A stretch of DNA of 32,098 bases, from NCBI GenBank assembly GCA_002784945.1, contig PFMD01000027.1, positions 19,576 through 51,673 of the forward strand, given 5' to 3'. The DNA comes from Candidatus Kerfeldbacteria bacterium CG_4_10_14_0_8_um_filter_42_10. GTDB lineage: Bacteria > Patescibacteriota > Patescibacteriia > UM-FILTER-42-10. The notes beneath the pieces are model-generated. The model worked only from the letters and a program-made list of their open reading frames with translations, was not told the DNA's origin and ran no database searches. The position numbers and the translations under genes were made by a program. Positions 1,199 to 2,393 of the stretch are shown here, in pieces. Position 1 is the first letter of the stretch; every line of letters begins with the position of its first letter.

Positions 1199-1238
1199 AA
1201 TCGCCCCAAACTTTTATTTGACAATTAGGGGATTTTTT
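1199..1238 (+). terminator. Weak intrinsic terminator candidate after recG
   Basis: CCCC (1204-1207) can pair with GGGG (1228-1231), extended by AAT/ATT across a 2-nt bulge, and is followed by six T. The stem is short and the loop is long, so this is tentative. The loop contains the -35 box of the next promoter, so read-through and initiation could interfere here. Confidence 0.3.
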
Positions 1239-1245
1239 ATATACT
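1218..1245 (+). promoter_or_regulatory. Sigma70-type promoter of the DksA-like cassette
   Basis: TTGACA at 1218-1223, a 16-bp spacer, then TATACT at 1240-1245 (one mismatch to TATAAT). Transcription would start near 1252 and give a leader of almost 290 nt before the start codon at 1540. The position just before a folded RNA and an isolated gene supports it. Confidence 0.65.
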
Positions 1246-1281
1246 TAACTGTTGTAATTCAACACTGCCCTTTGACCTTGT

Positions 1282-1370
1282 GGAAGAGCCAGCGTTTGTC
1301 CCCCAGCGAGCCAGGACAACTCTGGAGGAATGTTGCTCCCCTTCAGAGAACGTTGGCTCTTCCCGTTTTT
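1282..1370 (+). ncRNA. Candidate structured RNA: three-way junction in the DksA-like leader
   Basis: Three helices fit end to end. The closing stem pairs 1282-1296 with 1349-1363 (15 bp, one G-U). Hairpin 1 pairs TGTCC 1297-1301 with GGACA 1314-1318. Hairpin 2 pairs CTCTGGAGG 1320-1328 with CCTTCAGAG 1340-1348 (9 bp, one G-U). Almost every junction base is used, and five T follow at 1366-1370, so the fold could end as a terminator or be processed into a small RNA. It lies about 30 nt after the predicted transcription start and 170 nt before the zinc-finger gene. I do not recognise a known RNA family: no SRP, 6S, tmRNA or common riboswitch core is apparent. The pairings are directly visible; any function is inferred. 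Confidence 0.55.
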
Positions 1371-1451
1371 CGCAATCAACACCCTAAATTGAGGGGAATA
1401 CAAATAAATACACAAGTGAGTTCAAACGCTCAAGTTGAAAGGAGACTGGGG

Positions 1452-1469
1452 ATGAAAAGAGGTCCCTGA
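1452..1469 (+). CDS. Possible five-residue leader peptide (MKRGP)
   Basis: An ATG at 1452 follows a good Shine-Dalgarno site (AAAGGAG at 1438-1444, 7-nt spacing) and opens a mini-reading frame encoding MKRGP before TGA. Strong ribosome sites are scarce in this genome, so one in front of five codons, inside the long leader of the zinc-finger gene, may mark a leader peptide or a ribosome standby site. It is too short to support by sequence alone. Confidence 0.25.
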   Translation: MKRGP

Positions 1470-1539
1470 TACCCTTCCTATAAATCAAACCTTACCGGCT
1501 CATTTGAAAGTAATAACTTTGTAGGAAGGAGCAACGAGT

Positions 1540-1926
1540 ATGTCCAGCTATGGACTAAGTACTCAAAACAATGGCATGCTAAACGCTAAAGCTAGAGCAG
1601 CACTTGCAAAGGCTCAAGAAGCATTTGCTGCTGTGCAAGTGAAACTTGGCACCCCTGAGTCAGCAGGTGAGAGTTCCTATCGTGGCATGCATCCCGCTGA
1701 CAACGCTTTTCCGCGTGAAATGGCACCGATTCACAATCTGGAACGTTCGCTTCTTGTGAAAGAGAGCGAAGATCTAGCCACGATCATTGCGCTGATTAAA
1801 CGAGGGCTTTACGGCATCTGCCAGGGTCCGAACTGCAAACTGCCCAAAAAACGTATACCCAAGGCAAGGATGGAAGCTGTCCTGACCGCTACTCGGTGCA
1901 TTGACTGTCAGTCTGAACTCGAGTGA
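1540..1926 (+). CDS. DksA/TraR-type zinc-finger protein
   Basis: A 128-residue protein with an Ala-rich N-terminal helix and a C-terminal four-cysteine zinc finger: C94 and C99 (CQGPNC), then C120 and C123 (CIDC). The 'RIPKARMEA...CIDCQ' pattern matches the DksA/TraR finger, whose members bind the RNA polymerase secondary channel and change promoter response. The spacing (C-x4-C-x20-C-x2-C) is wider than usual and no DxxDxA coiled-coil tip is evident, so the regulatory role is inferred from family only. The start is fixed by AAGGAG at 1526-1531, 8 nt upstream. The gene stands alone between its own promoter and a strong terminator. Base composition differs from the surroundings: 33 of 60 bases are G/C over 1681-1740, against 22 of 60 over 25681-25740, which suggests transfer or strong codon selection. 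Confidence 0.75.
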   Translation: MSSYGLSTQNNGMLNAKARAALAKAQEAFAAVQVKLGTPESAGESSYRGMHPADNAFPREMAPIHNLERSLLVKESEDLATIIALIKRGLYGICQGPNCKLPKKRIPKARMEAVLTATRCIDCQSELE

Positions 1927-1976: not shown

Positions 1977-2027
1977 GCGGTGCAAAGAGATTTCTTTTTT
2001 CATGATCTCTCTAGCACCGCTTTTTTT
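1977..2027 (+). terminator. Rho-independent terminator of the DksA-like gene
   Basis: GCGGTGC (1977-1983) pairs with GCACCGC (2014-2020). Inside it, AGAGAT (1986-1991) pairs with ATCTCT (2005-2010). Seven T follow at 2021-2027. The last three T are also the first bases of the 107-nt repeat. Confidence 0.9.
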
Positions 2028-2131
2028 ATCCCCACACCTGAATATGTTAAGAAAAAAATAATTGAATATAAAAAAACCGAATTTTTTATATTCACGAACT
2101 AATGAAAAATAAGTTCAGGTGTGGGGATAAA
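2025..2131 (+). repeat. 107-nt palindromic element, copy 1 (terminal repeats TTTATCCCCACACCTGAA)
   Basis: An AT-rich 107-nt unit is bounded by perfect 18-nt inverted repeats. It contains a 12-bp inner hairpin (GAATATAAAAAA against TTTTTTATATTC). A second unit of exactly the same length lies inverted at 16299-16405. By hand alignment the two share their first 27 nt exactly and about 85% overall. No reading frame is inside. The right end lies one base from the stop codon of the GIY-YIG gene. It resembles a non-autonomous miniature element; no clear target duplication is seen. Confidence 0.85.
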
Positions 2132-2132
2132 T

Positions 2133-2393
2133 TCAAGATTCTAAACTTTCAATAAGACGCTTTCGAAGTTGATTAAAAGCATTGGATCTAAGTTTCAGAT
2201 TTTGTTCCCTTTTTCTAGCATCTTTCTCTGAAAGATATGCTTCATAGTAAATAATTCTAAATGGACAATAATATTTTGTTGACCTTACCTGCCCTATATT
2301 GTGCATAGCTATCCTTTTCCTAAGGTTACCAGTAGAACCAATATATACCCAATTATTTACCTTTTTGCTTTTGATTAAATAAACATAAAACAT
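2133..2393 (-). CDS. GIY-YIG domain protein (UPF0213/YhbQ-like)
   Basis: An 86-residue single-domain protein. The N-terminal 'FYVYLIKS...WVYIGST' carries the GIY-YIG signature (YVY...YIG), followed by the catalytic Arg region (GNLRKRIAMHN) and, near residue 58, the E of 'SEKDARKREQNLK', which fits the metal-binding glutamate segment. Such minimal GIY-YIG proteins are numerous in Parcubacteria genomes. They are nuclease-fold proteins whose natural substrates are mostly unknown. Upstream bases show no clear Shine-Dalgarno site. The 3' end abuts the 107-nt palindromic element, with a single base between stop and repeat. A second, broken GIY-YIG gene of another subfamily at 24450-24705 also ends directly at a palindrome. 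Confidence 0.88.
   Translation of the reverse strand: MFYVYLIKSKKVNNWVYIGSTGNLRKRIAMHNIGQVRSTKYYCPFRIIYYEAYLSEKDARKREQNLKLRSNAFNQLRKRLIESLES

What the first reader, a model, noticed from the sequence alone, without database searches (positions are those of the whole stretch)
1282..1370. Compact three-way-junction RNA in the leader of the DksA-like gene
A 15-bp closing helix and two internal hairpins (5 and 9 bp) use nearly every base of the 82-nt domain, followed by T5. The degree of pairing is far above that expected for an untranslated leader. It could be a riboswitch, an attenuator or a processed small RNA of an unknown class. A five-codon frame with a strong ribosome site follows downstream.
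Basis: seen in the sequence. Interest (0 to 1): 0.6.

Follow-up and report, generated by a model that had tools for sequence, protein, structure and literature searches.

The report
Conserved structured leader of DksA-like gene
In a lineage of tiny uncultured bacteria (Kerfeldbacteria), a small transcription-regulator-like gene begins with a tightly folded, evolutionarily preserved RNA that appears, together with a five-codon mini-gene, to control whether ribosomes can start on the main gene; it matches no catalogued RNA family, but its trigger is unknown.

Summary
The structure is real. Positions 1282-1363 form a three-way junction (15-bp P1, 5-bp P2, 9-bp P3; -42.7 kcal/mol, z -5.4). It is the most stable 94-nt fold in the window. 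A congener, Ca. Kerfeldbacteria CG08, has it at the same recG-dksA locus: about 77% identical, all 27 comparable pairs kept, with one double compensatory change and one pair deleted on both sides. The DksA-like protein is only 32% identical, so the RNA is preserved better than the gene it precedes. The T5 is not conserved (TTCC), which argues against an intrinsic terminator. No Rfam family matches, and no homologue turned up in about 380 class and 380 phylum genomes. The leader also holds a sigma-70-like promoter, a covarying 5' hairpin, a short ORF (MKRGP* / MMRGGP*), and a hairpin that buries the gene's Shine-Dalgarno directly after the short ORF's stop. The P3 loop is complementary over 8 Watson-Crick pairs to that ribosome-binding site in both species. 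Best reading: a lineage-specific cis-acting translational control leader. Short-ORF translation opens one lock, and the junction's loop provides, or withholds, a second. Two sequences only; the trigger is unknown and nothing is tested experimentally.

The parts
1218..1245 (+). sigma-70-like promoter: -35 TTGACA (1218-1223), 16-nt spacer, -10 TATACT (1240-1245)
   Evidence: 11 of 12 consensus matches (shuffles give 1.5 such sites by chance in this region); the same two hexamers at the same place in the congener
1250..1264 (+). 5' hairpin UGUUG-UAAUU-CAACA at about +1 (or an operator palindrome)
   Evidence: Congener has AGGUUG-..-CAACCU: outer U-A becomes G-C on both sides
1282..1363 (+). three-way junction RNA: P1 1282-1296/1349-1363, P2 1297-1301/1314-1318, P3 1320-1328/1340-1348
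   Evidence: the + strand folds better than the - strand (z -5.4 vs -3.0), and A-U to G-U changes fit only the + strand RNA
1302..1313 (+). loop L2; its GAGCC is conserved and complementary (GAGC:GCUC) to loop L3
   Evidence: L2 x L3 -5.7 and -6.1 kcal/mol; not significant against shuffles (0.22, 0.13)
1329..1339 (+). loop L3 AAUGUUGCUCC, complementary to the ribosome-binding site of the DksA-like gene (1528-1536) and alternatively to the P1 5' strand
   Evidence: L3 x RBS -14.0/-14.1 kcal/mol; 0.0004/0.001 of L3 shuffles as good; about 0.03 when the whole domain is shuffled
1366..1370 (+). T5 after P1; not conserved (TTCC in the congener)
1438..1469 (+). Shine-Dalgarno AAAGGAG and short ORF ATG AAA AGA GGT CCC TGA (MKRGP*)
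   Evidence: Sequence; congener (M)MRGGP* with the last Gly and the Pro codon changed only at third positions and TGA in the same place
1473..1529 (+). hairpin burying the Shine-Dalgarno: CCUUCCUA 1473-1480 pairs UAGGAAGG 1522-1529
   Evidence: kept in the congener with a different loop
1522..1536 (+). ribosome-binding site of the DksA-like gene, within the 13-nt block GGAAGGAGCAACG identical in both species
1540..1926 (+). DksA/TraR-like zinc-finger protein, 128 aa
   Evidence: PF01258 E 6e-5, just below cut-off in this copy; congener copy E 4e-15
1977..2027 (+). hairpin GCGGTGC..GCACCGC plus T run after the gene: probable terminator of a one-gene transcript
   Evidence: Sequence; congener has AGCGGTAC..GTACCGCT followed by a T run; not reported by the terminator scan, whose maximum loop is 8

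Best explanation
This is a cis-acting 5' leader that controls translation of a DksA/TraR-like gene in one genus of Kerfeldbacteria. The transcript starts near 1252, folds a 5' hairpin and the three-way junction, then carries a five-codon leader ORF ending Gly-Pro-stop and a hairpin that buries the main gene's Shine-Dalgarno. A ribosome at the short ORF's stop covers the hairpin's 5' arm and frees the Shine-Dalgarno, as in translation attenuation. The junction adds a second layer: its P3 loop (UGUUGCUCC) can pair with the Shine-Dalgarno and spacer (GGAGCAACG). That loop is also a possible partner of P1's 5' strand and, weakly, of loop L2, so folding or a bound factor could decide whether it locks the ribosome-binding site. 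Shown by sequence and comparison: conserved junction, short ORF, Shine-Dalgarno hairpin, complementarity. Inferred: translation of the short ORF, direction of regulation, the loop-RBS contact, and any trigger.
For: Junction about 77% identical at the same locus in the congener, R1 model score 61 bits, 27 of 27 comparable pairs kept including one G-C to C-G double change, plus a symmetric pair deletion (P(no broken pair) 0.002 with substitutions placed at random over the domain, 0.05 if confined to paired columns). DksA protein 32% identical against RecG 84%. Reading frame across the junction broken by non-triplet indels, so selection is on RNA. Short ORF kept with third-position changes in Gly and Pro codons. 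Modelled cost of opening the Shine-Dalgarno falls from 8.6 to 2.7 and from 9.3 to 4.5 kcal/mol when a ribosome occupies the short ORF's stop. L3 x RBS -14.0/-14.1 kcal/mol; best of 15 SD-bearing candidate start sites in the window, next -8.5.
Against: Only two independent sequences exist in the collections searched, so covariation is thin. The L3-RBS match was found after the fact: shuffling the whole junction gives an 8-nt match in about 3% of cases, and the net gain after opening competing pairs is only about -3 to -4 kcal/mol before any pseudoknot penalty. Both species share the match by descent. The short ORF has only five codons, no stall motif was tested, and G001's first Shine-Dalgarno is itself partly paired.
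Confidence: 0.5

Rival explanations
1. Metabolite-sensing aptamer (riboswitch) with loop-loop contact: the junction packs P2 and P3 through GAGC:GCUC, binds a ligand, and the Shine-Dalgarno hairpin or L3 is the expression platform.
For: Invariant GAGCC in L2 and GUUGCUC in L3 while the neighbouring loop bases diverge; a three-way junction with complementary loops resembles known aptamers in outline.
Against: Almost no unpaired junction bases to form a pocket (one A; AA in the congener); L2-L3 complementarity is only 4 bp and not significant; restricted to one genus; no enzyme or transporter downstream; no Rfam match.
Confidence: 0.15
2. Binding site for an RNA-binding protein (or the DksA-like protein itself), or a stability/processing element such as an RNase III substrate giving a stable 5' end or a small RNA.
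For: A 15-bp helix is a plausible RNase III site; DksA-family genes can be feedback-regulated (general knowledge).
Against: The protein has diverged to 32% identity while the RNA kept 77%, which makes recognition by its own product less likely; ribosome-binding-site-like targets elsewhere are no commoner than in G002, which lacks the RNA (13 and 16 against 17 sites), so no sign of action in trans.
Confidence: 0.2
3. Intrinsic terminator or transcription attenuator: P1 followed by T5 ends transcription unless an alternative fold forms.
For: G+C-rich stem followed by CG-T5 in this genome.
Against: T5 is replaced by TTCC in the congener; a terminator scan finds none.
Confidence: 0.05
4. Chance or neutral relic: a palindromic repeat or mobile fragment that happens to fold well.
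For: Restricted to one genus; a MITE-like repeat family does lie nearby at 2025-2131.
Against: Single copy in the genome; kept at one locus with compensatory change while the adjacent gene diverged.
Confidence: 0.05

Closest known systems
Translation attenuation by a leader peptide (erm-type; B. subtilis tlrB/yxjB, PMC6851288)
   Same: Short leader ORF with its own Shine-Dalgarno followed directly by a hairpin that buries the main gene's Shine-Dalgarno; a ribosome on the leader ORF would block the hairpin
   Different: Leader has only five codons ending Gly-Pro-stop, with no macrolide R/K-X-R/K motif; regulated gene is DksA-like, not a resistance gene; preceded by a large conserved three-way junction
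Translational cobalamin riboswitch, regulatory kissing loop (PMC10653944)
   Same: An aptamer-side loop that makes a long-range loop contact deciding whether the ribosome-binding site is closed
   Different: No cobalamin core (no Rfam match); here the loop is complementary to the ribosome-binding site itself; ligand unknown
Purine riboswitch (three-way junction; strand exchange studied in yxjA, PMC9756952)
   Same: Three-way junction with potential L2-L3 pairing and competition for the P1 strand
   Different: No conserved purine-pocket junction (1-2 junction bases here), different loops, no Rfam match

Membership tests
Rfam families (any of 4227) | Score at or above the family's gathering threshold | tested here: not met
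   no match in the window; only a 13.6-bit chance match to a microRNA family (threshold 95.5)
Leader-peptide translation attenuator | Short ORF with a Shine-Dalgarno upstream of the regulated gene, conserved as a coding frame | tested here: met
   MKRGP* and (M)MRGGP* at the same place; last Gly and Pro codons changed only at third positions; two sequences only
Leader-peptide translation attenuator | Hairpin that buries the main Shine-Dalgarno and whose 5' arm is covered by a ribosome on the short ORF | tested here: met
   computed folds in both species
Leader-peptide translation attenuator | Ribosome stalling on the leader ORF in response to a signal | not testable with these tools
   Needs toeprinting or ribosome profiling
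Riboswitch | Direct binding of a small ligand changing expression | not testable with these tools
   Needs in-line probing and reporters
Riboswitch | Conserved structured aptamer with covariation in several lineages | tested here: inconclusive
   Structure kept in two species of one genus; none found in 381 class and 380 phylum genomes
Intrinsic terminator / transcription attenuator | G+C-rich stem followed by a conserved U tract | tested here: not met
   T5 becomes TTCC in the congener; no terminator-like site
DksA/TraR family (downstream gene) | C4 zinc-finger domain PF01258 | tested here: met
   Congener copy E 4e-15; window copy E 6e-5, 23.4 bits against cut-off 24.9 alone, over the cut-off with neighbouring frame residues

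The most novel reading that the evidence does not exclude
A previously undescribed class of two-lock leader RNA: a three-way junction whose P3 loop is an anti-ribosome-binding-site, whose own P1 strand and L2 mimic that site and compete for the loop, coupled to a five-codon leader peptide that opens an independent Shine-Dalgarno hairpin, so that a DksA-like regulator is translated only when two signals agree.
Probability: 0.2. Interest if true: 0.75.

Novelty: new variant of a known kind. Interest (0 to 1): 0.45.

Why it matters
I found no paper on leader-based regulation in Patescibacteria in the library searched, and DksA/TraR-like proteins there have no assigned role that I know of. A leader RNA preserved better than the protein it precedes points to strong selection on when the regulator is made. 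It also gives a compact test case for layered translational control (short ORF plus long-range loop pairing) in a reduced genome.

Tried and rejected
Coding explanation for the junction: the 83-aa open frame 1218-1469 starts in the -35 box and the frame is broken by 2-nt indels in the congener. A GTG/ATG at 1279 opens about 35 codons in both species, but the peptides diverge after EPAFVP through frame changes, and no Shine-Dalgarno precedes it.

Minus-strand RNA: folds less well, and the G-U changes do not fit it.

Intrinsic terminator: T5 not conserved.

Trans-acting RNA with other targets: GAGCAACN(1-9)ATG sites are as common in G002, which lacks the RNA.

Distant homologues: the DNA pattern over 84,980 genomes gave one real hit, the congener, plus four others. 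None of these four reached even 20 bits with the R2 model, against 98-104 bits for the two true copies. A viral contig scan and plasmid and phage BLAST found nothing. G111, the only further class hit, lies at a contig end, with no DksA-like gene noticed by eye in the 1.2 kb read, and is taken as chance.

L2-L3 kissing: complementarity real but not significant.

Other DksA-like genes of the order: L053 (G001) has a short leader by eye; L051 and L052 lie on the reverse strand and their upstream regions were not read. The CCTTCCT..GGAAGGAG architecture occurs elsewhere only once in these three genomes, in a stretch taken as chance by eye.

Full report
Observation. The sequence at 1282-1363 folds as described: a 15-bp closing helix, a 5-bp and a 9-bp hairpin and one junction base, with MFE equal to centroid at -42.7 kcal/mol and none of 200 dinucleotide shuffles as good (z -5.41). 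Of 10,668 94-nt stretches sampled on both strands of the window it has the lowest MFE. The opposite strand folds less well (z -3.0). 58 of 82 bases pair, so 'nearly every base' is a little strong. The T5 is at 1366-1370.

Context. The window belongs to a 1.36-Mb genome of 83 contigs. The gene order here is recG, the leader with the DksA-like gene, GIY-YIG, methylpurine-DNA glycosylase, and a RadA-like protein (the names recG and radA are from domain content and my own reading). G001 has recG, leader and DksA-like gene, then the glycosylase (read by eye). In G002, of the same family, recG is followed directly by the radA-like gene, so the insert is confined to this genus among the genomes held.

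Conservation. The leader aligns at 77% DNA identity over the 139-nt query. A covariance model built from the window copy alone finds the congener at 61 bits, E 2e-13 per genome. On a structure-aware hand alignment all 27 comparable pairs are kept: two A-U to G-U, one G-C to C-G double change; one pair of P3 is removed on both sides. P2 gains a pair and a bulge. Placing the same substitutions at random over the domain leaves no broken pair in 0.2% of trials; confining them to paired columns gives 5%. This is modest evidence on two sequences, but it goes the right way everywhere. The frame across the junction is broken by 2-nt indels, so selection is on RNA, not peptide. RecG is 84% identical between the two genomes and the DksA-like protein only 32%: the leader has been held more tightly than the gene.

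Rest of the leader. A sigma-70-like promoter (TTGACA-16-TATACT) precedes a 5' hairpin whose outer pair changes from U-A to G-C. After the junction come a Shine-Dalgarno and the ORF ATG AAA AGA GGT CCC TGA (MKRGP*). In the congener it reads ATG ATG AGA GGA GGC CCG TGA, with the last glycine and the proline codon changed only at third positions. Three bases after the stop, CCUUCCUA pairs with UAGGAAGG, the Shine-Dalgarno of the DksA-like gene; the same hairpin with a different loop exists in the congener. Blocking the footprint of a ribosome on the short ORF's stop lowers the cost of opening the Shine-Dalgarno from 8.6 to 2.7 kcal/mol here and from 9.3 to 4.5 in the congener. This is the anatomy of leader-peptide translation attenuation as described for macrolide resistance leaders (PMC6851288).

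Link of the junction to the gene. A 13-nt block, GGAAGGAGCAACG, covering the Shine-Dalgarno and spacer is identical in both species while the sequences on either side differ. Loop L3 of the junction (AAUGUUGCUCC here, AACGUUGCUCG in the congener) is complementary to it over eight Watson-Crick pairs in each species. The duplex is -14.0/-14.1 kcal/mol, matched by 0.04% and 0.1% of L3 shuffles. Among 15 SD-bearing candidate start sites in the window the DksA-like gene ranks first, the next at -8.5. Against this, shuffling the whole junction gives an 8-nt match in about 3% of cases, and the net gain after opening competing structure is only about -3 to -4 kcal/mol before a pseudoknot penalty. The P1 5' strand (GGAAGAGCCAGCG) resembles the ribosome-binding site. 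In truncated transcripts it pairs with L3 in both species before P3 and P1 form, so L3 has competing partners. Whether L3 represses, or is kept away by L2 or P1, is inference.

Distribution. No Rfam family matches. The models found no homologue beyond the genus in 381 class genomes, 380 phylum genomes or the three genomes held for the order. Searches over 40 genomes use stricter filters that lose some weak matches. A DNA pattern over 84,980 genomes gave the congener only as a real hit. Viral contigs, phages and plasmids gave nothing.

Verdict. A real, conserved, lineage-restricted structured leader RNA with no known family. It works most like a leader-peptide translation attenuator with an added structured domain that may pair with the ribosome-binding site. 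The trigger is unknown, and the decisive tests are more homologues and reporter mutagenesis.

Noticed in passing
window 2025-2131: Perfect 18-bp terminal inverted repeats (TTTATCCCCACACCTGAA) around a 71-nt A+T-rich core; several dispersed places in the same genome match it at 71-100% identity over about 100 nt or more. It looks like a MITE-type repeat family; it lies beside the GIY-YIG gene and was not seen at the congener's locus.
   Followed up: partly
window 2133-2393 (- strand): 86-aa GIY-YIG endonuclease-domain protein present here but not seen at the congener's locus.
   Followed up: no
L002, downstream of the DksA-like gene, and inside the glycosylase gene: The congener carries palindromic repeats of the form GGCGAAAATGGCCATTTTCGCC, one between the genes and a related stretch (AAAAATGGCCATTTTCGCC) within the glycosylase coding sequence.
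   Followed up: no
window 1279-1389: An open frame with GTG here and ATG in the congener at the same base at the foot of P1, ending at an aligned TAA in both; peptides agree only in EPAFVP because of internal frame changes, and no Shine-Dalgarno precedes it.
   Followed up: yes
window 1540-1926: The first zinc-finger half of the DksA-like protein is altered (CQGPNC instead of CQEC, with five extra residues before the second pair of cysteines), so metal binding may differ from the congener's copy.
   Followed up: no
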